Positions 46,177 to 60,037 of a stretch of DNA of 64,000 bases are shown here, one piece after another (positions within the stretch are counted from its first letter, which is position 1; each line of letters begins with the position of its first letter). The notes below the pieces were generated by a model. The model ran no database searches. It was not told where the DNA came from and worked only from the letters and a program-made list of their open reading frames with translations. A program made the translations under genes and the position numbers. The stretch spans positions 3,444,492 to 3,508,491 of the forward strand of contig NZ_CP017674.1 in the NCBI RefSeq assembly GCF_001792815.1, in the 5' to 3' direction. Source of the stretch: Microbacterium sp. BH-3-3-3. Lineage in GTDB: Bacteria; Actinomycetota; Actinomycetes; Actinomycetales; Microbacteriaceae.

Positions 46177-46922
46177 CGGGCGTGGCCGCTTCCTCCGAGA
46201 AGAGCCGCCCGAGCGCCTTCTGGCCGCTCGCGGCGATCATCGTCCCGATCACGGGTCTGTTCGCGCGGATCGAGATCCGCGGGGCCGAGAACCTCCCTCG
46301 TGAGGGTGCGTACGTGATCGCTCCCAACCACAACTCCGAGTTCGATCCCGTGATCGTCGCGGTCGCCGTCTGGCGGCTGGGTCGGGCTCCGCGGTTCCTG
46401 GCCAAAGAGAGCCTCTTCAAGGTCCCCGTGCTGGGTGCCGCGCTGAAGGCCACGGGCATGGTGCCCGTGCCCCGCGCGTCGACCAGCGCGAACCAGTCGA
46501 TGAAGGCCGCCGAACAGATCGCGCGCGACGGCCGCGGCGTCATCGTGTACGCCGAGGGCACGCTCACGCGCGACCCCGACCTGTGGCCGATGCGGGGCAA
46601 GACCGGCGCGGTGCGCCTGGCCCTCGCCGCCGACCTGCCGCTCATCCCGATGGCGCAGTGGGGCGTGCAGCAGATCCTGCCCCGCTACGGCAAGCTGCGC
46701 TTCCCCCGGCGTTCGCACGTCATCGTGGAGTTCGGTCCGGCCATGGACATGAGCGAATACCGGGCGACCCCGACGCACCCGGCGACGCTCACCCGCGCGA
46801 CCGACGCGATGATGAATCGGATCACGGCCCTGCTCTCCGGCATCCGGGGTCTTCCCGCCCCCGCCGAGCGGTGGAACCCGTCGCAGCACGGGCAGAACGA
46901 GACGGGGCGCCTTGAGCCGTAG
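46173..46922 (+). CDS. plsC: 1-acyl-sn-glycerol-3-phosphate acyltransferase
   Basis: A 249-residue acyltransferase making phosphatidic acid. The catalytic motif NHNSEFD (NHX4D) is near residue 52, PRFLAKESLF and YAEGTLTRDP are motifs II and III. One N-terminal hydrophobic segment (FWPLAAIIVPITGLF) anchors it to the membrane. The GTG start overlaps the murA stop as GTGA, and gpsA overlaps its end, which links glycerol-3-phosphate supply and acylation. Confidence 0.9.
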   Translation: MTGVAASSEKSRPSAFWPLAAIIVPITGLFARIEIRGAENLPREGAYVIAPNHNSEFDPVIVAVAVWRLGRAPRFLAKESLFKVPVLGAALKATGMVPVPRASTSANQSMKAAEQIARDGRGVIVYAEGTLTRDPDLWPMRGKTGAVRLALAADLPLIPMAQWGVQQILPRYGKLRFPRRSHVIVEFGPAMDMSEYRATPTHPATLTRATDAMMNRITALLSGIRGLPAPAERWNPSQHGQNETGRLEP

Positions 46923-48054
46923 GAATGCGCCACCCCTCGCCGGCCCCAAGGTCGCCGTCGTCGGCGCCGGGAGCTGGGGGACCACCTTCGGCAAGATCCT
47001 GGCCGACGGGGGAGCCTCGGTGGTCATGTGGGCCCGACGCGCCGAGCTCGCGGCCGAGATCACCGAATCGAAGCGCAACAGCCGCTATCTCGCCGGAATC
47101 AACCTGCCGCGCACCATGACGGCGACCACCGACCTCGCCGAGGCGCTCACCGGCGCCGAGCAGATCTACCTCTCGGTTCCCAGCCAATCGCTGCGCGAGA
47201 ACCTCGCCGCCATCAAGCCGCTCGTGCAGCACACCGACGTGCCCATCGTCTCTCTCATGAAGGGCGTCGAGAAGACGACCGGGCTGCGCATGAGCCAGGT
47301 CATCGCACAGGTGCTCGAGTGCGACCCGGCGCGGATCGCGGTGGCATCCGGCCCGAACCTCGCCCTCGAGATCGCACGCGAGCAACCGACCGCGGCGGTC
47401 ATCAGCTCGCTCAGCCCCGAGACCGCCGAAGCGGTGGCCCGTCGCGCGCGCAACCGGTACTTCCGCTCCTTCGTCAACACCGACGTCATCGGCACCGAGT
47501 TCGGCGGAGTGCTGAAGAACCTCATCGCCGTCGCCATCGGCATCGTCGACGGCGTCGGCTATGGCGAGAACACGAAGGCGTCGATCATCACGCGCGGCCT
47601 CGTCGAGATGACCGACTTCGCGGTCGCCCAGGGCGCGCAACCCGAGACGCTCCAGGGGCTCGCGGGGCTCGGTGATCTGATCGCGACGTGCCAGTCGCCG
47701 CTCAGCCGGAACAACACCGCGGGGCGGCTGCTCGGACAGGGATACGGCTATAAAGAGGTGGTCGCGCAGATGCAGCAGACCGCCGAGGGGCTGGCCTCCG
47801 TCGCCCCGGTGCTGCAGCTGGCGAAGCAGGTCGGTGTCGACATGCCCATCGTGCAGCAGGTGAAGATGGTGCTCGACGGCACCATGGACCCGCGCGACAT
47901 CGCGCCGCACCTCACGACAGACGACGATCAGCCGCAGGGCGAGAGGACGCAGAATGACCAAACCGGTGGTGGTGGTGCTCTTCGGCGGGCGCTCCAGCGA
48001 GCATTCGATCAGTTCCGCCACGGCGGGCGGGGTTCTGCGGTCGATCGACCGTGA
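46912..48054 (+). CDS. gpsA: Glycerol-3-phosphate dehydrogenase [NAD(P)+]
   Basis: A 380-residue enzyme that makes sn-glycerol-3-phosphate for phospholipids. VAVVGAGSWGTTFGKIL binds the dinucleotide; VASGPNLALEIA, the catalytic lysine in GGVLKNLIAVAIG and NTAGRLLGQGY are typical. TTG at 46912 is the only start that keeps the N-terminus complete; it overlaps plsC by 11 bases. The last 33 codons overlap the start of ddl in another frame, giving a basic C-terminal tail (ALRRALQRAFDQFRHGGRG) beyond the usual end. Confidence 0.9.
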   Translation: MSRRNAPPLAGPKVAVVGAGSWGTTFGKILADGGASVVMWARRAELAAEITESKRNSRYLAGINLPRTMTATTDLAEALTGAEQIYLSVPSQSLRENLAAIKPLVQHTDVPIVSLMKGVEKTTGLRMSQVIAQVLECDPARIAVASGPNLALEIAREQPTAAVISSLSPETAEAVARRARNRYFRSFVNTDVIGTEFGGVLKNLIAVAIGIVDGVGYGENTKASIITRGLVEMTDFAVAQGAQPETLQGLAGLGDLIATCQSPLSRNNTAGRLLGQGYGYKEVVAQMQQTAEGLASVAPVLQLAKQVGVDMPIVQQVKMVLDGTMDPRDIAPHLTTDDDQPQGERTQNDQTGGGGALRRALQRAFDQFRHGGRGSAVDRP

Positions 48055-49039
48055 GCGTTTCGAGGTGATCCCCGTCGGGATCACCCGCGACGGCGCCTTC
48101 GTGCTCGAAGACGACGACCCCGACAAGTTCGCCCTGCGCCCCGAGGCCCTGCCCCAGGTGGTCGACAACGGCACCCGCGTACGGATGCCCGACTCGACGC
48201 TCTCACGGGAGTGGACGGTGACGGATGCCGATGGCATCCGCTCCCTCGGCGACGTCGACGTGGTGCTGCCCATCCTCCACGGCCGCTTCGGCGAAGACGG
48301 AACGGTGCAGGGCCTTCTCGAGCTGCTCGGCATCCCCTACGCCGGCGCCGGGGTGCTCATGTCGGCGATCGGGATGAACAAGAACGTCACCAAGCGCGTG
48401 CTGCGCTCGGCGAACGTCCCGGTCGTGCCGTGGGTCGCGGTCACGCGCGCCGACCTCGCCCGCGACCGGGCGCTGTGGGAGCGCCGCATGCGGGCCCTCG
48501 ACCTTCCGGTGTTCGTGAAGCCGAACCAGGCCGGCTCGAGCGTCGGCGTCACGAAGGTGTCGCGCTGGGAAGACCTCGATGCGGCGCTCGAGACCGCCTT
48601 CGCCGAAGACGTCCTCGCGCTCGTCGAGCAGACCATCGTCGGGCGTGAGCTCGAGTGCGGCGTGCTGCCCGGGCGAGACGGGGGAGCGGTGCGCGTGAGC
48701 GTCGCCGGAGAGATCGTGGTCACGGGGCGCGAGTTCTACGACTTCGAGGCCAAGTACCTCGATGCCCCCGGCGTCGATCTCGTGTGCCCCGCGGAGCTCG
48801 GCGACGGCGAGCTCGCCGAGATGCAGCGCATCGCCGCTCAGGCCTTCGAGGCGATCGGCGGGCAGGGCCTCGCGCGCGTCGACTTCTTCTACACCGGTAC
48901 CGAGTTCTACGTGAACGAGGTGAACACGATGCCGGGCTTCACCCCGATCTCGATGTTCCCCACCTGTTGGATCGCCTCGGGTCTCACCTATCCCGACCTG
49001 ATCAGCGACCTTCTCGACGCGGCGCTCGAGCGGGCCTGA
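47954..49039 (+). CDS. ddl: D-alanine--D-alanine ligase
   Basis: A 361-residue ATP-grasp ligase. VVVLFGGRSSEHSIS is the standard start, VKPNQAGSSVGVTKV and the C-terminal metal-binding RVDFFYTGTEFYVNEVNTMPG are the ATP-grasp blocks. GAGAGGAC precedes the ATG, which lies 101 bases inside gpsA. The murA-plsC-gpsA-ddl order joins peptidoglycan and phospholipid precursor genes. Confidence 0.93.
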   Translation: MTKPVVVVLFGGRSSEHSISSATAGGVLRSIDRERFEVIPVGITRDGAFVLEDDDPDKFALRPEALPQVVDNGTRVRMPDSTLSREWTVTDADGIRSLGDVDVVLPILHGRFGEDGTVQGLLELLGIPYAGAGVLMSAIGMNKNVTKRVLRSANVPVVPWVAVTRADLARDRALWERRMRALDLPVFVKPNQAGSSVGVTKVSRWEDLDAALETAFAEDVLALVEQTIVGRELECGVLPGRDGGAVRVSVAGEIVVTGREFYDFEAKYLDAPGVDLVCPAELGDGELAEMQRIAAQAFEAIGGQGLARVDFFYTGTEFYVNEVNTMPGFTPISMFPTCWIASGLTYPDLISDLLDAALERA

Positions 49040-49111
49040 CCCGCGTCGACGGTCACCGGCCGGAGCGTCGCCCACAGGGGCGCGGCGGGCGGCGGCGCGC
49101 GGTCGCGCCGT

Positions 49112-49615
49112 TCAGGGCGTCGGGGTCGGCGCGGGAGTTGCGTCCGACACCGAGGTGCACACCGAACCGGTGGCGGGCAGGTACTGGCGGATGAGCGGTC
49201 CCAGCGCCTGGGCGACGTCGCCACTGCTCGCGATGTCGTAGTCGAGGAAGACCTGAACGGCGGGCTGACGCCCGAACGTCGTCAGGGTGTACCGGTTCTG
49301 GTCGGCCTGCGACTCGTCGACGATCCAGTCCACGCCGTCGAACGATCGGCACGGCAGCGTCGAGGGGCCGGGGGCTTCGAGGCCGCAGGTCATGAGGATC
49401 GCGGCCGGGTCGCCCCAGGCGCCGGTCGCCTGCGCATCGGTCCAGCGGCGGTCCTGCCCCGAGATCGAGGCCGGCAGACGCGAGACGACCTCGGCGCACG
49501 CGGCGTCGTTGGCGAGCTTCGCGGGCTGCATCGGCACGGTCGTGCTGCACGCCGCGAGCCCCGGGATCAGGGCGACGGCGGCGAGGAGCGCAAGGGTCCG
49601 AGTTGAGCGGGGCAC
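49112..49615 (-). CDS. DUF3515 lipoprotein
   Basis: A 167-residue lipoprotein. TLALLAAVALIPGLAAC is a signal peptide with lipobox LAAC. The mature domain (CAEVVSRLPASISGQDRRWT; TCGLEAPGPS; DWIVDES) matches the actinobacterial DUF3515 family, usually found beside ddl and thiL as here. Two or more extra cysteines may form disulfides. The C-terminus is TPAPTPTP. Function unknown; convergent with ddl and divergent from thiL. Confidence 0.82.
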   Translation of the reverse strand: MPRSTRTLALLAAVALIPGLAACSTTVPMQPAKLANDAACAEVVSRLPASISGQDRRWTDAQATGAWGDPAAILMTCGLEAPGPSTLPCRSFDGVDWIVDESQADQNRYTLTTFGRQPAVQVFLDYDIASSGDVAQALGPLIRQYLPATGSVCTSVSDATPAPTPTP

Positions 49616-49628
49616 CCCTCCAGGCTAA

Positions 49629-49634
49629 TAGCGT
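49629..49634 (+). promoter_or_regulatory. -10 hexamer, thiL promoter
   Basis: TAGCGT stands six bases before the thiL GTG. The spacer GGAGGG could also act as a ribosome site. Confidence 0.5.
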
Positions 49635-49640
49635 GGAGGG

Positions 49641-50645
49641 GTGACCGACGCCGAGACCACCCGTGAGACCACCGTGGGAGAGCTGTCCGAGGGGCAGATC
49701 CTGCGGGGCATCCTCGACCGCCTTCCGCCCTCGACGGCGCCGGTGGGTCCGGGCGACGACGCGGCCGTGCTCGCGGTGCCCGACGGGCGCGTGGTCGCGA
49801 CGACCGACACCCTGGTGCACGGCCCCGACTTCCGGCTGGCGTGGTCGTCGCCCTTCGACCTGGGGTTCAAGTCTGCGGCCGTGAACCTCGCCGACGTGGC
49901 CGCGATGGGGGCACGACCGATCGCCCTGCTCGTCGCCCTGGCGATGCCCGAGTCGACGCCGGTCTCGTTCGTGCGCGGATTCGCCGACGGGCTCGCGGCC
50001 GCGTGCGCGGAACTCGCCCCCGGCTGCGCGGTCGAGGGTGGTGACCTCACGGTCTCGGACACGTTGACCATCGCGGTGACCGCGCTCGGCAGCCTCGACG
50101 GTCGGGAGCCGGTGCGCCGATCGGGCGCACGGGTGGGCGACGGTGTCTACGTCATCGGTGAGCTCGGGCTCGCGGCGCGAGGTCTCGAGGTGCTGTTCGG
50201 GCGGTTCACCGACACCCAGGGCGCGCCGCTGCCCGTCACCGACGACACGCGCGCGGCGCTCAGCGCCGTCGACGCCCTGGCCCTGTCGCGACAGCTCGCT
50301 CCGCGACCGCCCCTCGCCGAGGCTCTGCGCGCGGCCGACGCGGGGGCGACGGCGATGATGGACGTGTCGGACGGCCTCGCTCTCGACGCCACCCGCCTGG
50401 CCGACGCCTCCGGCGTGACGGTGGCCTTCGACTCCGCCACCCTGGGCGAGAACCCGGCCCTCGCGCTCGCGGGCGGAGAGGACCACGGCTTCCTCGTCAC
50501 CTTCGCCCCGGATGCCGAGCCGCTCGGTCATCGCGTCGGAACCGTCGTGCCGCGCGGCGCCGACGCCGTCACGGTGGACGGCCGCGCGTGGACGGGGCGC
50601 GCCGGCTGGGATCCCTACCGCGATTGGGATGCCGGTCGCGGCTGA
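49641..50645 (+). CDS. thiL: Thiamine-monophosphate kinase
   Basis: A 334-residue ATP-dependent kinase converting thiamine monophosphate to the active diphosphate. GPGDDAAVLAVPDGR, TTDTLVHGPDFRL, GFKSAAVNLADVAAMGA and MMDVSDGLALDATRLA are the family's Mg/ATP motifs. The start is GTG. In actinobacteria it often leads a DAK2-recG-rsmD-coaD series; here the neighbour is rsmD in the opposite orientation. Confidence 0.93.
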   Translation: MTDAETTRETTVGELSEGQILRGILDRLPPSTAPVGPGDDAAVLAVPDGRVVATTDTLVHGPDFRLAWSSPFDLGFKSAAVNLADVAAMGARPIALLVALAMPESTPVSFVRGFADGLAAACAELAPGCAVEGGDLTVSDTLTIAVTALGSLDGREPVRRSGARVGDGVYVIGELGLAARGLEVLFGRFTDTQGAPLPVTDDTRAALSAVDALALSRQLAPRPPLAEALRAADAGATAMMDVSDGLALDATRLADASGVTVAFDSATLGENPALALAGGEDHGFLVTFAPDAEPLGHRVGTVVPRGADAVTVDGRAWTGRAGWDPYRDWDAGRG

Positions 50646-50729
50646 TCACCGACGCCGTCCGGGGCCCGTCGGCCGTGTCGTCGTCGGCGCGGGCAGGTGA
50701 CGCCCCGCACGAGCCCAGGAGCGCCGGCG

Positions 50730-51293
50730 TCAGAGCGTCGGTCGGCCCCACCACATGGTCGTGTCGCCGTAGGCGCGGTCGCGCTCGGCCTCGAGGCCGG
50801 CGGCCGCCCAGTCGGGCGCGGTCGAGCGCGTGGCCCGCTCGACGATGACCGTGGCATCCGCGCTCAGACGGGGCGCCAAGGCGACCAGTGCCCGGGTCAG
50901 CTCGTCGTCGCCGAGGTCGTAGGGCGGGTCGAGGAAGACGAGGTCCCACTCGGCGGTGGATGCCGACAGGAACGTCGTCACGTTCGCGCGGTGCACCCGC
51001 GCGGGGGCGGTCACCCCGGCCGAGCGCAGGCGGTCCGCGTTCGTGCGGATCAACGCGGCCGCGGGGGCCGACAGCTCCACGAGATCCGCGGAGGCGGCTC
51101 CGCGGCTGAGGCTCTCGAGCCCGAGGGCCCCTGAGCCGGCGTACAGGTCGGCGACGCGGGCGTCGTCGAGCAGCCCTGCCGACTCCAGCGCACCGAAGAG
51201 CGACTCGCGGACACGGTCGCTGGTGGGGCGGGTGCCCTTCGGGGGGACGTCGAGGACGGTGCCGCCGGCGCGGCCGGAGATGATGCGCGTCAC
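50730..51293 (-). CDS. rsmD: 16S rRNA (guanine(966)-N(2))-methyltransferase
   Basis: A 187-residue SAM-dependent methyltransferase. The SAM motif is DLYAGSGALGLESLSRGA near residue 50 and the catalytic DPPY is in DLVFLDPPYDLG. MTRIISGRAGGTVL is a typical start. It usually precedes coaD on the same strand; here it is inverted and separated from recG and coaD by about 5 kb of accessory DNA. Confidence 0.92.
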   Translation of the reverse strand: MTRIISGRAGGTVLDVPPKGTRPTSDRVRESLFGALESAGLLDDARVADLYAGSGALGLESLSRGAASADLVELSAPAAALIRTNADRLRSAGVTAPARVHRANVTTFLSASTAEWDLVFLDPPYDLGDDELTRALVALAPRLSADATVIVERATRSTAPDWAAAGLEAERDRAYGDTTMWWGRPTL

Positions 51294-51306
51294 GGTCTCA
51301 GCCTAG

Positions 51307-52109
51307 GCTCCGGTGCGGGAGACGACGGTCCTGAACTGGGACTCGTCGCCGCGCTCCTTGTAGATCGCCCTGAACTTCGAGCAGGTCTACGGGCAACCAT
51401 CTGGGCAGCCTCGACTGCAGATCCTCGTGAACGACACAAACGCGGTCGATGAGTGGGGTGCGCGCTCCGGCATCCGCACAGACGTGGCCCCATTCGAAGA
51501 GGTCGATCGGTATCTGTGGTGTCAGAGCCGGTGGTGGAGCCTGGGCGCCCTGCGAGGAGGTCAACCTCCCGATGACTGCCCGTCCCGTCCTCTTCCGGGG
51601 TCGACCGTTCAGCCCTCCTGCCCGTACCGTCGTCGACAGCGACGAACGTGCCGACCCCCTCTACGGTGCCGATCTCTGCGCCCACAGGAACGCCGTCCCC
51701 TACCTCTGCCCAGCAGGCCGTCCGGCCACTGCCTCGGTATCGCTCTCGACGTCGACAGCAAGCGTTGGAAGGCAGCTGACCGAGACCGAACTTGGCCACG
51801 CGCCCGGTGAAGCGGACGGTGCCGTCTCGCGTTCGGTTTTCATCCCCGACTTCACCCCCGGGAGTGCACCGCATCGACGTCCGCGGAACGACGAGCGGAC
51901 CGAAATCCTTGCGCCTGATATCGGCGGCGATGAGGAGAGCATCAACAAGCCGCCTGCCGCGATTGGTGGACGCATCCATTCCCGTGACGGCCAGCCCGCC
52001 CAGCTCGGTGAGCAGTCTGGCTGTGGTCCGATGACATCGCCGCCGGATCCAATTGTCTCGCGATCTGACGGCCAACCATGAGAGACAGTCGTGCTGCGCG
52101 AACCAAAAG
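51307..52109. other. Decayed sequence at the left end of the accessory island
   Basis: About 800 bases with no intact gene. On the minus strand 51305-51370 reads KFRAIYKERGDESQFRTVVS to a TAG stop, like the end of a protein, but an in-frame stop lies just upstream. On the plus strand, 51376-51530 reads plausibly (RLQILVNDTNAVDEWGARSG) without a start. Longer open frames here have Arg/Pro-rich text with no family resemblance. These look like remnants of one or more lost genes. Confidence 0.5.
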
Positions 52110-52145
52110 AAAGGCCGCCCCCTCTAGCGAGAGCGGGCGGCCTTT
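52110..52145. terminator. Terminator at the 3' end of the island operon
   Basis: AAAGGCCGCCC (52110-52120) pairs perfectly with GGGCGGCCTTT (52135-52145), with an inner CTCT/AGAG stem. It lies about 190 bases after the secreted protein stop on the minus strand. Confidence 0.8.
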
Positions 52146-52332
52146 GTCCGATTGAGCTTCGGACGATGCGCACTCCGCGTCTTTGACGGGAGCCAACTAG
52201 CCCTGCTGCGCTCACCGAGGAGAGCAGGCTGGTTCGTCCTTCGTGTCCGCGGGAACTACATCAACCGGAGCATGAGCGACGCCGCGGCACTGACGGCGAC
52301 CTCAGCGTTGTTCCCCCATGACGGCGTCGTCG
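52146..52332. other. Spacer between terminator and secreted protein gene
   Basis: About 190 bases with no gene or repeat that I can support; it would form the 3' untranslated region of the island transcript. Confidence 0.4.
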
Positions 52333-52695
52333 TCAGCCCGCGCAGATGCGGTTGGTGCTCCCGTAGATGTCCACAGCGTCACGACCCACGTTGATATTGC
52401 GGAGCCGATTGCCGGGCCGGTAGACGCTGAACGACTTTCGGCTCACCCCCGGACGCGAAGCGGGATAGTCGTACTGCCGCTGGTTTACATTCTCGAAAAC
52501 GATGACGCCCACGCCTGACCCCCGGCCGGCTACAAGTCGGAAAGGAACCGACACGTAGTGGCTCGTGCCCTGTCCGCAGGTGTAATAAGCGTCGTTCTGG
52601 GATTCCGCGTTCGCAGCCATGGGTGCTGCGACGACGAGAGATACGCCTACAGTTGCCGCCCCCAGGACTGCTGCGAACTTCTTTTTCACTGACAT
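52333..52695 (-). CDS. Small secreted two-cysteine protein
   Basis: A 120-residue exported protein. Residues 1-30 are a clean Sec signal peptide (KKKFAAVLGAATVGVSLVVA, cut after AANA). The mature 90 residues look beta-rich, are basic (pI high), and carry only two cysteines, near each end (YYTCGQG and NRICAG), which could close nearly the whole chain by one disulfide. GGAAGGTGACGC before the ATG is a good ribosome site, overlapping the end of the lipoprotein gene 3 bases upstream. It does not show the lactococcin-972 motifs. It may be the product that the linked ABC system exports or protects against. Confidence 0.75.
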   Translation of the reverse strand: MSVKKKFAAVLGAATVGVSLVVAAPMAANAESQNDAYYTCGQGTSHYVSVPFRLVAGRGSGVGVIVFENVNQRQYDYPASRPGVSRKSFSVYRPGNRLRNINVGRDAVDIYGSTNRICAG

Positions 52696-52698
52696 GCG

Positions 52699-53370
52699 TC
52701 ACCTTCCGTAGTAAGCGTCCGGAAACTCAGGGCAAACCCCTTGTAGTTCCATCAGCTCAGAGCCCCCTGGCGTAGTCATATCCAGGTACGGAGACCATAC
52801 GGCGTCGTTCAGACCCTTCATGCCATCGAGGAAGGCACTCTGGCTGGGTGGATTACCGGTTGGCTCATAACCCTTGTCGCGGATGCATTGGGACAGATCA
52901 GTCGTCCAGTAGTGATGGAGCCAGACCAGTTGCTCGTCCGATGGGGGGCGGTTGATCTCTGCTTCGTACGGGTACGAAGCTCGGCAGACGAAGCTCGACA
53001 CGGCGAACGATTGCTTTTGCCCCTCCGGCACTACTCCTACGTCGAACGCGTCCCCGGCAGGAGAGACTTTCGCCGGGTACCCTGCGGCGGTGAGGCATTC
53101 GGCAAGCACCCGAGGGCGTTCGTCCTCACTCACTGCACGGACGACCTTTATGTCGCTTGGACGCTGAGCGGAGGAAAACTCGGCTGCCACGCCCGCCCAA
53201 AGCCGATCCGCTTCGCTCGCGTACAGGTGTGTGCGCTCGACCTCGGTCAGGGGCGCCAGAGAGGGCTTTGGGGGCGCAGCCTGCGCTGTACATCCTGCAG
53301 CAAGCATTACAGAGATCAGTAAAGTCGCGGCGATGGCCGCGCCCCGCCGAATCGGATGTGAAAAGTTCAA
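52699..53370 (-). CDS. Lipoprotein with paired Cys motifs
   Basis: A 223-residue lipoprotein; ATLLISVMLAAGC is the signal with lipobox LAAGC. The mature part contains two related half-motifs, AECLTAAGYP and SQCIRDKGYEP, each a Cys before a Gly-Tyr, plus SFVCRASYPYE and GVCPEFPDAYYGR, giving four cysteines likely to pair outside the cell. PPSDEQLVWLHHYW and PPSQSAF follow. The TTG start is set by GGAGGAAG seven bases ahead; no better start exists. It sits between an ABC permease and the secreted protein gene, so it may be the cell-surface binding or immunity part. Confidence 0.75.
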   Translation of the reverse strand: MNFSHPIRRGAAIAATLLISVMLAAGCTAQAAPPKPSLAPLTEVERTHLYASEADRLWAGVAAEFSSAQRPSDIKVVRAVSEDERPRVLAECLTAAGYPAKVSPAGDAFDVGVVPEGQKQSFAVSSFVCRASYPYEAEINRPPSDEQLVWLHHYWTTDLSQCIRDKGYEPTGNPPSQSAFLDGMKGLNDAVWSPYLDMTTPGGSELMELQGVCPEFPDAYYGR

Positions 53371-53389
53371 ATTACTTCCTCCGTCGAGA

Positions 53390-54481
53390 TTAGGGAATCC
53401 GAAGCTCTCGTATTGGCTGCCTCCTGCTGGCCACGACGCCCGGGATCACCGCGGCGCCCGATGCGGAAAGTATCGCCAGCAGAGCCAGCGCAGCAATGAA
53501 TCTCACATCTGGTATGGGGTCTGAGGTCAATACCAGGGCGGTTATGCCGAGGGTCATCCCACTGGCGACGCCGGCGGCGGCGAGTATGAATGTCTGCAGG
53601 GTCAATAGCGCAATGACAAAAAGTCGCGTCGCACCGAGAGCGCGCCGACGTCCAAAATCTTTTCGCCTCATCATTACCAACCCGTAAAGCAGGACGGACA
53701 CGATGAGGCCCGTGACTCCCAACAGGGCGAGCACTAGTCCGCGAGAGAATGATCCCAGTTGGCCATCAATCACATTCCTGAGCTGAAGCAACTCCGAACT
53801 GGTTTCCACCTGTACTTTTGAGGTGTCCGCGGCGCCCAAAACGGACGATACCGCGGGCGCCAAAGACAAGACGTCACCAGGGCTGGCGGCGACAATGAAG
53901 ATACGACTGACTGGCTCATTCTCGCTGGGGTCCCTGGGGACCAGAAGGACGGGGCTCAGGCTCTGAAGAAAGTCAGGGGCGTCATACCTTCCTGCAACTC
54001 CCGCGGTGGTGCCATCGGAGGAGGCCACCGCTCCTGCGTACTCCGCGAGCCCCAGTGTTGACCTCGCTTCAGGCGACGGGAAGCCGATTTGCTCTCCGTC
54101 TGATGACGAGCGCAGGCCGAGAGTCCGCAGGTCTAGGGTGTAAACAAACCGGGCAGCCACCTTCGAACCCCCAGGTATAGTCGCGTTCACAGTGTCGAAG
54201 GAACTCGAGAATGCGCCAGACCATTCAATGTTGTCGAGCGAAGCGATTCTCTCAATTGCCTCGCTGGTCACTCCGGCACCTTCCTGTGCCGTCACCGTAA
54301 TGGTGCGGGTGCCGACGGAGTCGATTGACTGGAGTACGCGCTGCTCGGCACCTACCGCCCGGCCAGTTGTCATCAAAACTGCAAAAATCATGCCGGCGAT
54401 GACTAATAGGGTCAGAGTCGATGCAACGGGTTGCGACTTCGCTGACGCGATTGACTCTCGGAGCAGTGAACCGATCTTCAC
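53390..54481 (-). CDS. ABC transporter permease, FtsX/MacB-like
   Basis: A 363-residue permease with the four-helix MacB topology: one helix near residue 30 (ASTLTLLVIAGMIFAVLMTT), a ~220-residue extracytoplasmic domain, then three C-terminal helices (LVLALLGVTGLIVSVLLYGL and following) with the cytoplasmic RRKDFGRRRALGATRLFVI coupling loop. The GTG start overlaps the ATPase stop (GTGA) and has GGGAGGTG ahead. This topology belongs to mechanotransmission systems that act on lipoproteins or peptides outside the membrane rather than classic import. Confidence 0.85.
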   Translation of the reverse strand: MKIGSLLRESIASAKSQPVASTLTLLVIAGMIFAVLMTTGRAVGAEQRVLQSIDSVGTRTITVTAQEGAGVTSEAIERIASLDNIEWSGAFSSSFDTVNATIPGGSKVAARFVYTLDLRTLGLRSSSDGEQIGFPSPEARSTLGLAEYAGAVASSDGTTAGVAGRYDAPDFLQSLSPVLLVPRDPSENEPVSRIFIVAASPGDVLSLAPAVSSVLGAADTSKVQVETSSELLQLRNVIDGQLGSFSRGLVLALLGVTGLIVSVLLYGLVMMRRKDFGRRRALGATRLFVIALLTLQTFILAAAGVASGMTLGITALVLTSDPIPDVRFIAALALLAILSASGAAVIPGVVASRRQPIRELRIP

Positions 54482-55128
54482 AGGCGCACCTCCCTGTCGC
54501 ACAGGGCGGCGACCTCTGGAGAATGAGTGACAATCACAACCGTGGCCCCTTTATCTTTCGCGTGGCTGTACAGGGAGTTGATCACCAGAGCGCTTGTAGC
54601 TGGGTCGAGGTTTCCGGTCGGCTCGTCTGCGAGCAGGACAGCAGGAGAGCTGAGGAGTGCGCGACATAAAGAGATGCGCTGTGCTTGACCTCCGGAGACC
54701 TGCCCGGGCTTCCTGTCGGCGGGAATATCAACGCCAAAATTTTCCAGAAGTCGCTGCGCATGTTTCGTGACGGCGCGGCGGGGTTCCCCGCGGTAGAGCG
54801 CGGATTCGGTGACGTTGTCAAGTATGGTGCGCGTTGAATCGAGCGCGGCGTCTTGGAAAACAAATCCAAAGGTTTGTGCTCGCATTCGTGATCTCTGCGA
54901 ATCGTGCATATCGGTCGTGCTCACGCCACCGATCCGGATTTCTCCGCTGGAGGGACACAGCATGAGCCCGAGGAGATACAGAAGCGTGCTCTTTCCTCTA
55001 CCGCTGGGGCCAGTGATCGCTGTCATGGAGCCAGGCTCGAACTGCGCGGACCAGCCTTGAAGGAGTGGTTCTGATGGTGAATATCCGAACGTCACACCCT
55101 CAGCGGTGAGGCTCACCGGTCTGGTCAT
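54478..55128 (-). CDS. ABC transporter ATP-binding protein, MacB/LolD-like
   Basis: A 216-residue ATPase with a full motif set: Walker A GPSGRGKST (residues 40-48), Q-loop FVFQDAAL, signature VSGGQAQR, Walker B AVLLADEPTGNLDP and H-loop VTHS. The X-loop and size match the MacB/LolD group. It overlaps both neighbours by 4 bases (ATGA with the adaptor, GTGA with the permease), so adaptor, ATPase and permease are made in fixed ratio. Confidence 0.92.
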   Translation of the reverse strand: MTRPVSLTAEGVTFGYSPSEPLLQGWSAQFEPGSMTAITGPSGRGKSTLLYLLGLMLCPSSGEIRIGGVSTTDMHDSQRSRMRAQTFGFVFQDAALDSTRTILDNVTESALYRGEPRRAVTKHAQRLLENFGVDIPADRKPGQVSGGQAQRISLCRALLSSPAVLLADEPTGNLDPATSALVINSLYSHAKDKGATVVIVTHSPEVAALCDREVRL

Positions 55129-56213
55129 GCGGACCTCATCATCTTGACGCGCGTCCCCTCTTGTACTCCGTCGACAACTGCCATGCCTTGTGCAGACTGT
55201 TTGACGATGACTGTGACTGTCTCGCCAGTATCCGTTTCGACTACGATTCTTCCGTCCGGTAGCGAACTGAGGGAAGCGACGGGGACAACAACACCGGATA
55301 CCGGTTGTACGAGCAGTACAGTTGAGGGATAGTTGGACTTTCCATCCACAGGGATTTTCGCGCAGTCTTCGAGACAGATCGGCTCATCTTCGCTCGTACT
55401 CGTCAGCTCGATTGTGAACGAAGCCGTTGCTGGATCGGACTTCTGTTCGGAGGTGGTAGCTTCCCATGTCGAGTTGTCCGGCCCGGTGATGCGCACAAGG
55501 GCACCAGTGGGTATTTGGGCAGCCTGGTTTTCGGTCGCCTGAATCACGAACTGGGGGGACGAGGGAAGAACGCTAATGACGGATTCCGCACTCTGGAGTG
55601 TGTGTCCGGCAGCGATCTTCGTCTTGTCTATTATGATCCGCGTTGGGAGTTCGGGGAGATATATTATGTCGCCTGCATTGGTTGCGCCAGTCGACTCCAC
55701 ACCCAAAGCCTTCTGCCACCGTTTGATAGCGAGGACGGTTCCGCTCTCGGCCTTCCCGTCAATCGCTCCTCGGTAGTGGCCTAGGGCGGAGAGCATTCGT
55801 TGCAGCTGAGCGACATCGTCCCCGGAGACGCCCTCTCCGATCGAACGGAACGAGGGAACGGAGCCGACAGCCGCCACGACGGGGCGCAGATTCACGGTGT
55901 AGAGAGTGGAACCGGCGTCCGCGACCATGGTTGATTCAGCCGGTGCACTCGTGACCACGCCGATTGCCTGGTTGACGCCGACAGGTGCGATTGACCACGA
56001 GGCGGTTACGCCCAGAGTCAGCGAGGAGGAGACCTCTCCAAGCTGGGCCGTCGCGTACGAGGCGGACTCGGTCTCAAGCGGGTCCGGTGCTGGTGCGGTG
56101 ACCGTTGTGATCGCCCACGCGGATGCTGCGCCAACGATGAGAGCGAGCAGTCCGCCCCCGAGAAGCAGTGGCCACACCCGGTGTCTGGTCTGCGTAGCGC
56201 GTCCGTTCATCAC
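55125..56213 (-). CDS. Peptidoglycan-binding/HlyD-like adaptor protein
   Basis: A 362-residue membrane-anchored protein leading the island operon. One N-terminal helix (VWPLLLGGGLLALIVGAASA) is followed by a beta/coil region. A PG_binding_1 domain (about 135-185: GVSGDDVAQLQRMLSALGHY, then LAIKRWQKALGV) sits where the coiled-coil hairpin of HlyD adaptors would be. The C-terminal part is adaptor-like (VVVPVASLSSLPDGRIVVET). The start is GTG at 56213 with TACGGT six bases ahead, or the next codon, ATG. It likely bridges the MacB-type permease to the cell wall. Confidence 0.85.
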   Translation of the reverse strand: MMNGRATQTRHRVWPLLLGGGLLALIVGAASAWAITTVTAPAPDPLETESASYATAQLGEVSSSLTLGVTASWSIAPVGVNQAIGVVTSAPAESTMVADAGSTLYTVNLRPVVAAVGSVPSFRSIGEGVSGDDVAQLQRMLSALGHYRGAIDGKAESGTVLAIKRWQKALGVESTGATNAGDIIYLPELPTRIIIDKTKIAAGHTLQSAESVISVLPSSPQFVIQATENQAAQIPTGALVRITGPDNSTWEATTSEQKSDPATASFTIELTSTSEDEPICLEDCAKIPVDGKSNYPSTVLLVQPVSGVVVPVASLSSLPDGRIVVETDTGETVTVIVKQSAQGMAVVDGVQEGTRVKMMRSA

Positions 56214-56381
56214 CGCTTCACCGTAGGTGTCCGGGCGGGGTCGGCATTCGCGGGCTTTTTCAATCGGTACATGGTGTCGGTTGACTATTCAGCTGCGTCG
56301 TGGTGTCTCGGCTCCGGCCGGCCGGTCACCGCGAGCGCGCACAGCCCCGTGGGGCCGGAGGACGGTGTCGGCGGCTCTCCC
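56214..56381. promoter_or_regulatory. Divergent promoter region, island operon and recG
   Basis: About 170 bases between the adaptor start (minus) and recG (plus). It holds TACGGT at 56220-56225 (minus strand) six bases before the adaptor GTG, and the -10 of recG at its right end. A TTGACT at 56281 has no partner. GC content rises from left to right, marking the island edge. Confidence 0.45.
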
Positions 56382-56387
56382 TAGACT
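56382..56387 (+). promoter_or_regulatory. -10 hexamer, leaderless recG promoter
   Basis: TAGACT stands six bases before the recG ATG. Confidence 0.55.
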
Positions 56388-56393
56388 CGGAGC

Positions 56394-58574
56394 ATGCCCG
56401 CTCTCACGCTCGCCTCCCGTCTCGACGGTGTCATCGGCGGCAAGACGGCGGCCGCGTTCGATCGCGCGTTCGGCATGAAGACCGTGGGCGAACTCCTCGA
56501 GCACTACCCGCGTCGCTACGCCCGACGCGGCGAGCTCACGCCGATCGCGACGCTGCCGCTCGGTGAGCCCGTGACCATCGTGGCCGAGGTCGTGAGCGCG
56601 AGCGAGCGGCGTATGCAGAACCGCCGCGGGTCCCTGCTCGAGGTCGTGATCAGCGACGGCGACGGGCGCATGTCGCTGACCTTCTTCAATCAGCCCTGGC
56701 GCCTGAAAGAGCTCACCCCGGGTCGCCGGGGCATCTTCTCGGGCAAGGTCGGCGAGTACCGGCGGCAGACACAGCTCACCAACCCCGACTACGAGCTGTT
56801 CGACGACATCGCCGAGGCCCGGGCCGAGGCCGAGGTCACCGCAAAGCGCCCCATCCCGATCTACCCGGCCACCAGCTCGGTCCCCAGCCCCCTCGTGCAG
56901 AAGACCATCTCGCTCGTGCTCGACGCCGTGGGCGACATCGACGATCCGCTGCCCGACGACCTGCGGGCGCGCCGAGGGCTCGTCGACGCCCGCACGGCGC
57001 TCGAACACATCCACCGGCCCGAAGACGACGACGACATCGCTCCGGCCGTGGCGACGCTGCGCATGCACGAGGCCTTCGTGCTGCAGACCGCCCTGCTGCA
57101 GCAGCGGCAGTTCGTGCGGGCCCTGTCGGCCACGAAGCGTCCCGCCGCCGCGGGCGGGCTGCTCGAGCGATTCGACGCGATCCTGCCGTTCGAGCTCACC
57201 CCCGACCAGCAGAGCGTGGGTGCCCGGATCGCCGCCGACATGATCGGCGACTGGCCGATGAACCGGCTCGTGCAGGGCGAGGTGGGGTCGGGCAAGACGC
57301 TCGTCGCCCTGCGCGCGATGCTGCAGGTCGCCGAGTCGGGCGGGCAGTCGGCACTCATCGCCCCCACCGAAGTGCTCGCCGCTCAGCACCTGCGCTCCAT
57401 CGCCCGCATGCTGGGCCCCGAGCTCGCGCCCGAGCTCATGCCGACCCTGCTCACCGGCCAGCTGCCCGCCGCCGAGCGCCGCAAGGCCGCCCTCCGGGTG
57501 GCCTCGGGGCAGGCCCGCATCGTCGTGGGCACCCACGCGCTGCTCAGCGCCCGCACGACCTTCGCCGAGCTGGGCTTCGTCGTCGTCGACGAACAGCATC
57601 GCTTCGGTGTCGAGCAGCGCGAGGCACTGCGCTCCAAGGGCGAATCGCCGCACACGCTCGTACTCACGGCGACGCCGATCCCGCGCACCGTCGCCATGAC
57701 GGTGTTCGGCGATCTCGATGTCTCGACCATCCGCACCATGCCGGCCGGGCGTGCCGGCATCCAATCGTTCGTGGCTCCGCTGGCCGAGAAGCCCGGGTGG
57801 TTCGCGCGGGTGTGGGACCGGGTGGCCGAAGAGGTGCGTCTCGGACGCCAGGCGTTCGTCGTGTGCGCGGCCATCGATGCCGAACAGCTCGCCGCCGACG
57901 AGAAGACCGACGAACCCGCCGACGCCCCGGCCGCGGCGGCCGCCGCCGAGAGCGGCCGCACGCGGTGGGGCGTCGTGCAGGTCGAAGAGATGCTGTCGCG
58001 TATGCCGTCGTTCGCGGACATCCGCGTGCAGATCCTGCACGGCAAGCTGCCGGCCGACGAGAAGGACGCGGTCATGCAGGCCTTCGCGCGCGGCGACATC
58101 GACGTCCTCGTGGCCACGACCGTGATCGAGGTGGGCGTCGACGTGCCGAACGCCTCGACCATGGTGATCCTCGAGGCCGATCGCTTCGGGGTCTCGCAAC
58201 TCCACCAGCTCCGCGGACGCGTGGGCCGCGGCGGGGTGCCGGGCCTGTGTCTGCTGGTCACCGAGGCGTCTCCGGGCTCGTCGTCGCGATCGCGTGTCGA
58301 GGCCGTGGCGAGCACGCTCGACGGCTTCGCGCTGGCCGAGGTCGATCTCGAGCTGCGGGGCGAGGGCGATGTGCTCGGCGGGGCGCAGTCGGGCGTGCGC
58401 TCGTCGCTGCGACTGCTGCGCGTGGTGACCGATGCCGATCTCATCACCGAAGCCCGCGCCGAGGGGGAGCGGCTGCTGGCCGACGATCCGACGCTGGAGC
58501 GGCATCCCGGTCTGGCGGCCGCGCTCGAGCGCCGTGTCGGCGTGGAGGAGCGGGCGGCGCTCGCGAAGTCGTGA
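56394..58574 (+). CDS. recG: ATP-dependent DNA helicase RecG
   Basis: A 726-residue branch-migrating helicase that reverses stalled forks. The N-terminal wedge domain (YPRRYARRGELTPI, OB fold to about residue 170) is followed by the motor: Walker A GEVGSGKT, the DEQH box (VVVDEQHRFGVEQR), TATPIPRT, and motifs V-VI (ATTVIEVGVDVPNASTMVIL; QLRGRVGRGG). The Ala-rich insert AAAAAESGRT near residue 520 is an expansion. It is the first conserved gene right of the island. Confidence 0.94.
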   Translation: MPALTLASRLDGVIGGKTAAAFDRAFGMKTVGELLEHYPRRYARRGELTPIATLPLGEPVTIVAEVVSASERRMQNRRGSLLEVVISDGDGRMSLTFFNQPWRLKELTPGRRGIFSGKVGEYRRQTQLTNPDYELFDDIAEARAEAEVTAKRPIPIYPATSSVPSPLVQKTISLVLDAVGDIDDPLPDDLRARRGLVDARTALEHIHRPEDDDDIAPAVATLRMHEAFVLQTALLQQRQFVRALSATKRPAAAGGLLERFDAILPFELTPDQQSVGARIAADMIGDWPMNRLVQGEVGSGKTLVALRAMLQVAESGGQSALIAPTEVLAAQHLRSIARMLGPELAPELMPTLLTGQLPAAERRKAALRVASGQARIVVGTHALLSARTTFAELGFVVVDEQHRFGVEQREALRSKGESPHTLVLTATPIPRTVAMTVFGDLDVSTIRTMPAGRAGIQSFVAPLAEKPGWFARVWDRVAEEVRLGRQAFVVCAAIDAEQLAADEKTDEPADAPAAAAAAESGRTRWGVVQVEEMLSRMPSFADIRVQILHGKLPADEKDAVMQAFARGDIDVLVATTVIEVGVDVPNASTMVILEADRFGVSQLHQLRGRVGRGGVPGLCLLVTEASPGSSSRSRVEAVASTLDGFALAEVDLELRGEGDVLGGAQSGVRSSLRLLRVVTDADLITEARAEGERLLADDPTLERHPGLAAALERRVGVEERAALAKS

Positions 58575-58604
58575 CGGCGCGGGCCGGGTGCGGGGCGTCG
58601 TCGG

Positions 58605-58610
58605 TAGGCT
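58605..58610 (+). promoter_or_regulatory. -10 hexamer, leaderless coaD promoter
   Basis: TAGGCT stands six bases before the coaD ATG. Confidence 0.55.
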
Positions 58611-58616
58611 GACGGC

Positions 58617-59114
58617 ATGAACCCCCGGATCGCCGTCGTCCCCGGCTCGTTCGACCCGCCGACCCTCGGTCACCTCGATGTGATCCGCCGCGCGGCGGGG
58701 CTGTTCGATCAGCTCCACGTCCTGGTCGTGCACAATCCGGGCAAAGAGGCGATGCTGCCCCTCGCGCAGCGGCAGTCGCTGCTGGAGCAGTCGATCTCGG
58801 AGGCCGGGATCGAGGGCGACGTCATCGTGGCGGCCTGGAGCATGGGGCTCCTGGTCGACTACGCCACCGAGGTCGGCGCCCGCGTTCTCGTGAAGGGCAT
58901 CCGTTCGCAGGTGGACGTGGCCTACGAGACCCCGATGGCGATCGTCAACCGCGACCTCGCCCACGTCGAGACGGTGTTCCTGCTGCCCGATCCCTCGCAC
59001 GCGCTCGTGTCGAGCTCGCTCGTGCGACAGGTCGCGGGGCTCGGCGGCGACGTGTCGCCGTACGTCCCCCCGGCCGTCGCCCGTTTCCTCGACACCGGGG
59101 CACGCGGGCTCTGA
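58617..59114 (+). CDS. coaD: Phosphopantetheine adenylyltransferase
   Basis: A 165-residue nucleotidyltransferase for the fourth step of CoA synthesis. The nucleotidyltransferase motif TLGHLD follows [20 protein letters not shown] and the C-terminal [20 protein letters not shown] are typical. It stands in the recG-coaD-yceD-rpmF-rnc-mutM-smc order conserved across actinobacteria. Confidence 0.94.
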
Positions 59115-59181
59115 CCGCGGGTCCCACCGGTCCGCGGCGGGTCGCGACGCGGCATCCGGCCCGTGTTCAGGGGCGCGCGGG

Positions 59182-59187
59182 TAGCAT
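59182..59187 (+). promoter_or_regulatory. -10 hexamer of the yceD-rpmF-rnc-mutM unit
   Basis: TAGCAT stands eight bases before the yceD GTG, consistent with a leaderless or near-leaderless transcript. Confidence 0.5.
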
Positions 59188-59195
59188 GGACGACC

Positions 59196-59756
59196 GTGAG
59201 AACCCGCCGACCCGGTCCCTTCCAACTCCCCGTACGTGACATCGAGCACCACGCGGGAGAGATGCGCGAGCACAGCCTCGACATCCCCGCGCCCGAGAAG
59301 TGGGGTGAAGGACTCGTCTCGATCCCCGAGGCCGAGCCCCTCGAGATCGAGGTGCGTCTGGAGTCGGTGCACGAGGGCATCCTCGTGTCCGGCACCGTCG
59401 ACACCACCGCCACCGGCGTGTGCGGCCGATGCCTCATCGACATCGAGGAGCCTGTCGAAGTCGAGTTCCAGGAACTTTTCACGTATCCTGGGAACGAAGC
59501 GAGTGACTTCGACGTTCAAGACGACCACGTGGATCTTGAAAATCTGGTCCGGGACACGATTGTCCTGTCGCTTCCGTTCCAGCCGGTGTGTCAGCCGGAC
59601 TGCCCCGGGCTCGACCCGAACACGGGCGAGAGGCTGACGGAAAGCACCGGCGACACGGAGCAGACGTCCGTTGATCCTCGATGGGCTGCGCTCCAGCAGT
59701 ACACCCCAGACGACGGCGATGCGCTCCGCGCCGCCCCCAAGACAGAGAAGAGCTAG
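59196..59756 (+). CDS. yceD: YceD/DUF177 protein
   Basis: A 186-residue member of the DUF177 family, which accompanies rpmF and is needed for normal 23S rRNA/large-subunit maturation in other bacteria. The zinc-binding-like cysteines are in GVCGRCLIDIEEPVEVEFQE and PVCQPDCPGLD. The GTG at 59196 gives RTRRPGPFQLPVRDIEHHAG. rpmF follows 2 bases later. Confidence 0.88.
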   Translation: MRTRRPGPFQLPVRDIEHHAGEMREHSLDIPAPEKWGEGLVSIPEAEPLEIEVRLESVHEGILVSGTVDTTATGVCGRCLIDIEEPVEVEFQELFTYPGNEASDFDVQDDHVDLENLVRDTIVLSLPFQPVCQPDCPGLDPNTGERLTESTGDTEQTSVDPRWAALQQYTPDDGDALRAAPKTEKS

Positions 59757-59758
59757 CC

Positions 59759-59968
59759 ATGGCAGGTAACCCCCCGAAGCGGAAAGTCTCCCGCTCGAAC
59801 ACCCGCTCGCGCCGCGCGCAGTGGAAGGCCGAACCCACCCCGCTGGTGAAGACCATCGAGAACGGCAAGGTCGTCTACAGCCGCCCCCACCAGGCCAAGG
59901 TCGTCACCGACTCGCAGGGCACCGAACTCTTCATGGAGTACAAGGGCCGCAAGGTCGCCGACGTCTGA
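59759..59968 (+). CDS. rpmF: 50S ribosomal protein L32
   Basis: A 69-residue L32 beginning MAGNPPKRKVSRSNTRSRRA. The usual four zinc cysteines are absent, so it is a zinc-independent (C-minus) form, as is common in actinobacteria with duplicated L32 genes. It lies between yceD and rnc. Confidence 0.93.
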   Translation: MAGNPPKRKVSRSNTRSRRAQWKAEPTPLVKTIENGKVVYSRPHQAKVVTDSQGTELFMEYKGRKVADV

Positions 59969-59979
59969 TCGTCGCCCGC

Positions 59980-60037
59980 GACGAGACACTGCGACGCGAG
60001 ACACTGTGACGCGAAACACCGTGACGCGAAACACCGT
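59980..60037. repeat. 15-bp tandem repeat at the rnc start
   Basis: Units GACGCGAGACACTGT (59993), GACGCGAAACACCGT (60008) and the same (60023) follow a shortened unit at 59980. They encode TRNTV repeats at the N-terminus of RNase III, and two units carry a potential GTG start (60006, 60021). Confidence 0.75.

What the first reader, a model, noticed from the sequence alone, without database searches (positions are those of the whole stretch)
52333..56213. Five-gene envelope ABC system with a small secreted protein
Adaptor with a peptidoglycan-binding domain, ATPase, MacB-like permease, four-cysteine lipoprotein and a 90-residue mature exported protein form one operon with 4-base overlaps, a TTG start set by a strong ribosome site and a terminator. 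Similar ABC sets accompany bacteriocins such as lactococcin 972, but this secreted protein lacks those motifs. It may be a new type of exported effector with its own export or self-protection machine.
Basis: inference. Interest (0 to 1): 0.75.

Follow-up and report, generated by a model that had tools for sequence, protein, structure and literature searches.

The report
Likely bacteriocin cassette, hypervariable secreted protein
A Microbacterium-like bacterium carries an acquired five-gene cassette in which a steady envelope transport machine is paired with a fast-changing small secreted protein and its matching lipoprotein; it is built like cassettes of a known bacteriocin family but with an unrelated secreted protein, so it is probably a new sort of bacteriocin system.

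Summary
The five-gene operon is real (52333-56213, minus strand). It lies in a low-GC insert between rsmD and recG, which are 50-694 bp apart in 13 of 14 other genomes of the genus. These proteins are mostly about 20-25% identical, yet 47 of 49 pass a leave-one-out family test, the window's among them. A central relative models as a seven-strand beta protein (pLDDT 96). The few similar secreted proteins come with similar lipoproteins even beside dissimilar permeases; 27 of 75 loci have lipoprotein without a detected secreted gene. Genuine lactococcin 972 genes of the same bacterial family often sit in the same five-part layout with a homologous lipoprotein, once beside rsmD too. The secreted protein itself fails every lactococcin 972 test. 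Best reading: a toxin-immunity pair on a lactococcin-972-type envelope machine. Antibacterial activity, target and transport direction are inferred. New variant of a known kind.

The parts
55125..56213 (-). Membrane-anchored adaptor with peptidoglycan-binding domain (residues 130-176, about 55686-55826)
   Evidence: PF01471 43.5 bits against cut-off 23
54478..55128 (-). ABC ATPase
   Evidence: ABC_tran; FtsE and TIGR03608 (lactococcin 972 ABC) score alike, both below their curated cut-offs
53390..54481 (-). FtsX/MacB-like permease (longer start possible to 54502)
   Evidence: PF02687 26.6 bits; 47-53% identical to 15 relatives
52699..53370 (-). Lipoprotein with lipobox Cys27 and four further conserved cysteines; proposed immunity protein
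   Evidence: relatives in 71 of 75 non-redundant trio loci; homologous to lipoproteins of lactococcin 972 cassettes
53376..53383 (-). Ribosome-binding site GGAGGAAG before the TTG start of the lipoprotein
   Evidence: Sequence
52333..52695 (-). Small exported protein with two cysteines near the ends of the mature part; proposed toxin
   Evidence: leave-one-out family score 8.9 bits, above 100 of 100 Cys-preserving shuffles
52110..52145 (-). Terminator-like stem-loop
51294..56393 (.). Inserted low-GC segment between rsmD and recG

Best explanation
The operon is a mobile bacteriocin cassette of the lactococcin-972 architectural type with a different toxin module. The small protein is exported by Sec, folds as a beta protein closed by a disulfide between its ends, and acts on the envelope of related bacteria that lack the matching lipoprotein. 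The lipoprotein, anchored on the outer face of the membrane, binds or blocks its cognate toxin: immunity. The adaptor-ATPase-permease unit, tied to the wall by the peptidoglycan-binding domain, clears the toxin (or the toxin-lipoprotein complex) from the membrane and pushes it outward, for self-protection and release. Shown here: operon, linkage, family membership, hypervariability, adjacency of secreted and lipoprotein genes, loci with lipoprotein but no detected toxin gene, layout and lipoprotein homology shared with lactococcin 972 cassettes. Inferred: antibacterial action, target, direction of transport, the disulfide, and that the window's protein has the fold modelled for its relative L138.
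For: Linkage: 45 of 75 non-redundant trio loci have a two-Cys exported protein near by and 71 of 75 the lipoprotein; 59 candidates in 645 kb near the permease against 2 in 283 kb of far flanks. 42 of 59 candidates have a lipoprotein frame within 400 bp on the same strand, 10 more within 70 bp on the other strand. One family: 47 of 49 beat at least 95 of 100 Cys-preserving shuffles in leave-one-out tests, the window's beats 100. Matched pairs: for the 8 pairs with secreted proteins at least 45% alike and permeases under 75%, lipoproteins average 45.8% against 26.8% overall, 0 of 2000 shuffles as high. Replacement: L081 and L086 share 76% in the permease, 19% and 26% in the best secreted and lipoprotein match. 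Immunity-like orphans: 27 of 75 loci with lipoprotein but no detected secreted gene, L123 with six lipoprotein frames; in L111 the secreted gene is reduced to its 3' end beside an intact lipoprotein and trio, while relative L114 has it whole. Known-toxin link: PF09683 genes in 12 of 120 family genomes; in several the five-part layout of the window, lipoproteins homologous with all four cysteines aligned (hhalign 97.3%, E 2.3e-11); one such cassette lies beside rsmD as well. Patchy and mobile: permease in 36 of 366 genus genomes, insert at rsmD-recG, a plasmid copy.
Against: No activity is known for any member of the secreted family in what I saw. The mature secreted proteins show no homology to lactococcin 972. 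The overall partial correlation of secreted-protein and lipoprotein identity given permease identity is small (0.096, 74 of 2000 shuffles as high), and lipoproteins follow permeases (Spearman 0.21) more than they follow secreted proteins (0.11) over all pairs; the eight similar pairs are few and partly related. 27 of 75 loci lack a detected secreted gene, which could also mean that the trio and lipoprotein have another job. The lactococcin 972 permeases are only distantly alike (hhalign 78%), and of five of their adaptors three have weak PG-binding matches, one over a curated cut-off.
Confidence: 0.6

Rival explanations
1. A wall-control or signalling system. An FtsEX-like ABC unit with a wall-bound adaptor acts on the envelope; the secreted protein is a non-toxic regulator or strain-specific signal read through the lipoprotein.
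For: The ATPase scores FtsE (159.7 bits) as high as the lactococcin 972 ABC model (159.1), both below cut-off; the permease has an FtsX domain; lipoprotein and trio occur without a detected secreted gene in 27 of 75 loci.
Against: Patchy presence (36 of 366 genus genomes), insertion in a core block, large divergence and the use of the same layout by true lactococcin 972 genes do not suggest a housekeeping regulator.
Confidence: 0.17
2. A protection-only system: trio and lipoprotein defend against foreign envelope toxins, and the secreted protein is a decoy or binding protein that captures them outside the cell.
For: Several loci carry arrays of lipoproteins and no detected secreted gene: L123 six, L125 four, L121 three frames. 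An adaptor-ABC set of Bacillus, YknWXYZ, protects against the SDP toxin (PMC4887032, start of abstract in the listing).
Against: Two-gene units of secreted protein and lipoprotein with matched divergence fit a toxin and its immunity better than a decoy; true toxins of the lactococcin 972 family take the same slot.
Confidence: 0.1
3. A glycan-binding or adhesive surface protein with its transport and anchoring proteins, varying under immune, phage or niche pressure.
Against: Those values are in the range of a common arrangement (note); I saw no sugar-use genes recurring beside the cassette in the maps (sequence lengths and homology labels only). FtsX/MacB-type permeases are not importers (established knowledge).
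Confidence: 0.08

Closest known systems
Lactococcin 972 cassettes of Microbacteriaceae, five-part form (clearest in L204, L207, L208, L210, L213)
   Same: Small Sec-type exported protein, four-Cys lipoprotein (homologous), adaptor, ABC ATPase, MacB-like permease of about 355 residues; one copy (L205/L221) lies in the same core block, between rsmD and thiL
   Different: The secreted proteins are unrelated by profile comparison; permeases only distantly alike; PG-binding matches of the adaptors weak
Classical lactococcin 972 / streptococcin B three-gene operons
   Same: Exported beta-type protein with ABC genes; accessory genes presumed immunity and transport (PMC11796350 and PMC4055356, passages)
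   Different: Those have a large membrane protein and an ATPase, no lipoprotein and no adaptor; also seen here beside L200, L206, L211, L212 and L214. No PF09683 or TIGR01653 match in our protein
YknWXYZ of Bacillus
   Same: Adaptor-type ABC set that protects against a peptide toxin of the same cell (PMC4887032, start of abstract in listing; part roles recalled)
   Different: Not encoded with the toxin and without the four-Cys lipoprotein (recalled)
MacAB/FtsX-type ABC systems
   Same: PF02687 domain; PDB profile matches to MacB and related permeases
   Different: Peptidoglycan-binding domain in the adaptor; operon partners

Membership tests
Lactococcin 972 family (secreted protein) | Match to PF09683 or TIGR01653 | tested here: not met
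   Window protein: no such match. Of 52 relatives none has PF09683 at E 1; NCBIfam shows 25 of 31 families, none TIGR01653; ten database relatives have none at E 10
Lactococcin 972 family (secreted protein) | GG-x-W-x-YG motif and profile similarity in the mature part | tested here: not met
   Motif as seen in alignment A4 is absent from the window protein; hhalign of mature family A8 against A4 gives probability 0.05%; with signal peptides only these align
Lactococcin 972 family (secreted protein) | Sec-exported small beta protein | tested here: inconclusive
   Signal peptide by my own rule; beta model for relative L138, window model poor at pLDDT 61
Five-part lactococcin-972-type cassette (layout) | Four-Cys lipoprotein homologous to that of the known cassettes | tested here: met
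   hhalign 97.3%, E 2.3e-11, 183 columns, the four cysteines aligned
Five-part lactococcin-972-type cassette (layout) | Adaptor with wall-binding domain, ABC ATPase, related permease | tested here: inconclusive
   Gene order and sizes agree; adaptors: 3 of 5 with PG-binding matches, 1 over a cut-off; permeases hhalign 78%
TIGR03608 putative bacteriocin export ATPase (lactococcin 972 type) | Curated score cut-off 254.85 bits | tested here: not met
   159.1 bits; FtsE model 159.7 bits
FtsX/MacB-like permease | PF02687 over its gathering score | tested here: met
   26.6 bits against 25.5
Bacteriocin | Inhibits related bacteria; producer protected by a dedicated immunity gene | not testable with these tools
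   Needs bench work; only genetic pattern seen

The most novel reading that the evidence does not exclude
A hypervariable bacteriocin family that I found no description of (beta proteins of about 70-92 residues closed by one disulfide) is spread over Microbacteriaceae and some neighbours; each toxin is matched by its own four-Cys lipoprotein, and the pair is exchanged on a standing wall-anchored ABC machine of the kind that lactococcin 972 also uses: a modular envelope-toxin platform with at least two unrelated toxin families.
Probability: 0.5. Interest if true: 0.75.

Novelty: new variant of a known kind. Interest (0 to 1): 0.62.

Why it matters
If true, it adds a large and mostly unlabelled set of probably narrow-range antibacterial proteins in soil- and plant-associated actinobacteria, and it bears on an open point: the roles of the accessory genes of lactococcin-972-type bacteriocins had not been verified by experiment (PMC11796350, passages seen). 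Matched toxin-lipoprotein pairs with natural lipoprotein-only loci make the immunity question directly testable.

Tried and rejected
Single-sequence searches with the secreted protein led nowhere: only itself among 5.8 billion proteins, one copy in its genome, and one other hit in 398 family genomes, which lies in an ORF that I judge unrelated by eye (L002) and dropped. Family libraries gave no credible family for the secreted protein or the lipoprotein. The UniRef label 'Lactococcin 972 family bacteriocin' on P0003, P0012 and P0015 is not backed by NCBIfam models at E 10, and NCBI calls them hypothetical; I take it for an automatic label, which is my guess.

The first structure job (window protein, full length) gave pLDDT 61 and was not used. 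The second (mature part of relative L138) gave 96; its fold matches are weak, and the solved lactococcin 972 family chains 2LGN and 9HKJ are not among the rows shown. The profile search of the secreted family against solved sequences gave only weak, scattered matches (best E 0.013, antibody chains). A first gene finder was mistrained on antisense ORFs and replaced. ORFs between rsmD and the terminator-like stem gave no Pfam family worth the name.

Rows dropped and biases: of the window and 79 fetched loci, L140 gave no permease gene model; the other 79 were cut to 75 by removing permeases at least 95% identical. Among the candidates counted at least three look spurious by eye (L082, L104:11648-11917, L105:5644-5934); L083 and L086 hold genes that the filter missed. 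Neither gene type was found in L102, L117 and L155; the last two are short contigs. The filter asks for two cysteines, so the two-Cys trait is partly selected; 'exactly two in 48 of 49' and the shuffle test are not. A3 (52) and A8 (49) were picked by hand from the candidates. In A8, L036 and L089 fail the shuffle test. L216 and L217, fetched for weak lipoprotein hits, hold no such cassette in the map.

Literature: the searches (0 papers; 4; 1; 8; 2; 9) listed no paper that from its listing describes this cassette. I saw listings and abstract starts, and passages of PMC11796350, PMC4055356 and PMC5719810, no whole text. The library is open-access only.

Full report
What is there. That is my inference.

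An insert. GC is 56-63% across the operon against 68-78% and 71-73% on its two sides, and a gene finder trained on native codons passes over it. In 13 of 14 other genomes of the genus examined rsmD and recG start 50-694 bp apart, in the three nearest (recG 93, 92 and 88% identical) 123, 263 and 50 bp; in the fourteenth rsmD was not within the held flank. In the window they are 5.1 kb apart. No tRNA gene was found in 46000-60000.

The ABC trio elsewhere. A profile of 16 permeases (A1) matches in 36 of 366 genomes of the genus at E 1e-60, in 44 of 398 of the family at E 1e-40, in 20 of 85 genera, and in 4 of 296 of the phylum sample; the own genome is counted each time. The map shows adaptor, ATPase and permease in order in most of the fetched loci, with some parts not modelled. 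Of 72,556 plasmid records one, a Clavibacter plasmid typed as mobilizable, holds a permease relative at E 1e-20.

The lipoprotein. Searched as a single sequence in 247 genus genomes it was found in 19; 17 of these have E of 1e-6 or better, own genome included, and all 17 are in the list of trio genomes; the two weak ones (G164, G504) are not. With a profile, 71 of 75 non-redundant trio loci carry it.

The secreted protein. By a fixed filter (signal-peptide rule, a cysteine soon after it, the last cysteine near the end, a ribosome site or ATG) 45 of 75 loci have one; density 59 in 645 kb near the permease against 2 in 283 kb of far flanks. In one search, 42 of 59 have a lipoprotein frame within 400 bp on the same strand; of the 17 others, 10 have one within 70 bp on the other strand. 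In the 49 chosen for A8 the part from nine residues before the first cysteine is 71-92 residues long, the cysteines are 60-80 apart, and there are exactly two in 48. Leave-one-out profiles place 47 of 49 above at least 95 of 100 Cys-preserving shuffles; the window's scores 8.9 bits and beats all 100. One relative is in L092 (BLASTP 36% over 45 residues, largely signal peptide). The mature part of a central member, L138, models with pLDDT 96 as seven strands; the window's own full-length model is poor, so that it shares the fold is inference.

Change and exchange. At 60-70% permease identity the best secreted match has median 25% and the best lipoprotein match 27% identity (197 pairs; shuffled secreted proteins 14%, 95th percentile 26%). 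L081 and L086 share 76% in the permease but 19% and 26% in the pair; L124 and L138 share 48% in the permease but 60% and 55% in the pair. For the 8 pairs with secreted proteins at least 45% alike and permeases under 75%, mean lipoprotein identity is 45.8% against 26.8% overall, 0 of 2000 shuffles as high. Against this, over all pairs of 42 adjacent units the partial correlation is 0.096 (74 of 2000 shuffles as high) and lipoproteins follow permeases more closely than secreted proteins; most pairs are at saturation. I read the data as matched pairs that can be replaced as units, with the caution that eight pairs are few and partly related.

Lipoproteins without a toxin gene. 27 of 75 loci have lipoprotein but no detected secreted gene; L123 has six lipoprotein frames, L125 four, L121 three. 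L111 is telling: beside its relative L114 the secreted gene is down to about its last 50 bases, with lipoprotein, adaptor, ATPase and permease present. In G588 a pair of secreted protein and lipoprotein stands with no trio within about 7 kb (L219); the genome has trios elsewhere. In G581 a lipoprotein lies near a contig end (L220), so its neighbours are unknown.

The lactococcin 972 link. PF09683 is found in 12 of 120 family genomes, not in the own genome. I fetched the 17 loci. My reading of the maps gives two main layouts. One is toxin, a membrane protein of 656-737 residues and an ATPase (L200, L206, L211, L212, L214). The other is toxin, four-Cys lipoprotein, adaptor, ATPase and a permease of about 355 residues, clearest in L204, L207, L208, L210 and L213, and probably in L199, L202, L205 and L209, where parts are modelled short or missed; some adaptors and permeases are assigned by order and size. 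In L201 and L203 toxin and lipoprotein stand without a trio in view, and L198 fits neither. The second layout is the window's. The lipoproteins are homologous with all four cysteines aligned. Of five adaptors three have PG-binding matches, one over a curated cut-off. The permeases are distantly alike. In L205/L221 such a cassette lies between rsmD and thiL, the next gap of the same core block. In L130 a lactococcin 972 gene with its lipoprotein lies about 4 kb from a trio of our type. The secreted proteins themselves are unrelated by every comparison made.

Mechanism. In the passages seen, lactococcin-972-type bacteriocins are thought to be Sec-exported, form a beta sandwich, bind lipid II and inhibit septum formation, while the accessory genes are presumed immunity and transport genes without experimental proof (PMC11796350; for orf2-orf3 PMC4055356); in Brevibacterium such a gene is reported in an operon with two membrane proteins and an ATPase, on an island (PMC5719810). 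I propose the same logic here: Sec export, an envelope target, the lipoprotein as cognate immunity, and the ABC machine for expulsion. Pairing and shared machine rest on sequence; killing, target and transport direction are inference.

Verdict. The operon belongs to a widespread, mostly unlabelled and hypervariable system: a new variant of the lactococcin-972-type cassette with an unrelated toxin candidate.

Noticed in passing
L205 and L221 (G060:C2), window 47954-58574: The core block ddlA-DUF3515-like-thiL-rsmD-recG-coaD holds a lactococcin 972 cassette between rsmD and thiL in G060 and the two-Cys cassette between rsmD and recG in the window: perhaps an insertion hot spot.
   Followed up: partly
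L218 (Clavibacter plasmid pCL-A6099) and L133:7437-7781: A two-Cys secreted gene candidate next to the permease has no entry in the gene table shown (which is stated to be incomplete), so such small genes may go unannotated.
   Followed up: partly
G816: Another genome of the same order has four separate matches to the permease profile.
   Followed up: no
window 51300-52100: Stretch of intermediate GC between rsmD and the terminator-like stem without a recognisable gene or Pfam family.
   Followed up: partly
L143:5728-6138 and L124:4712-5110: Longer exported proteins with more than two cysteines near trio loci, perhaps a further cargo type.
   Followed up: no
L130:10512-11617: A lactococcin 972 gene and its lipoprotein lie about 4 kb from a trio of the window's type that has a lipoprotein but no detected secreted gene.
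   Followed up: partly
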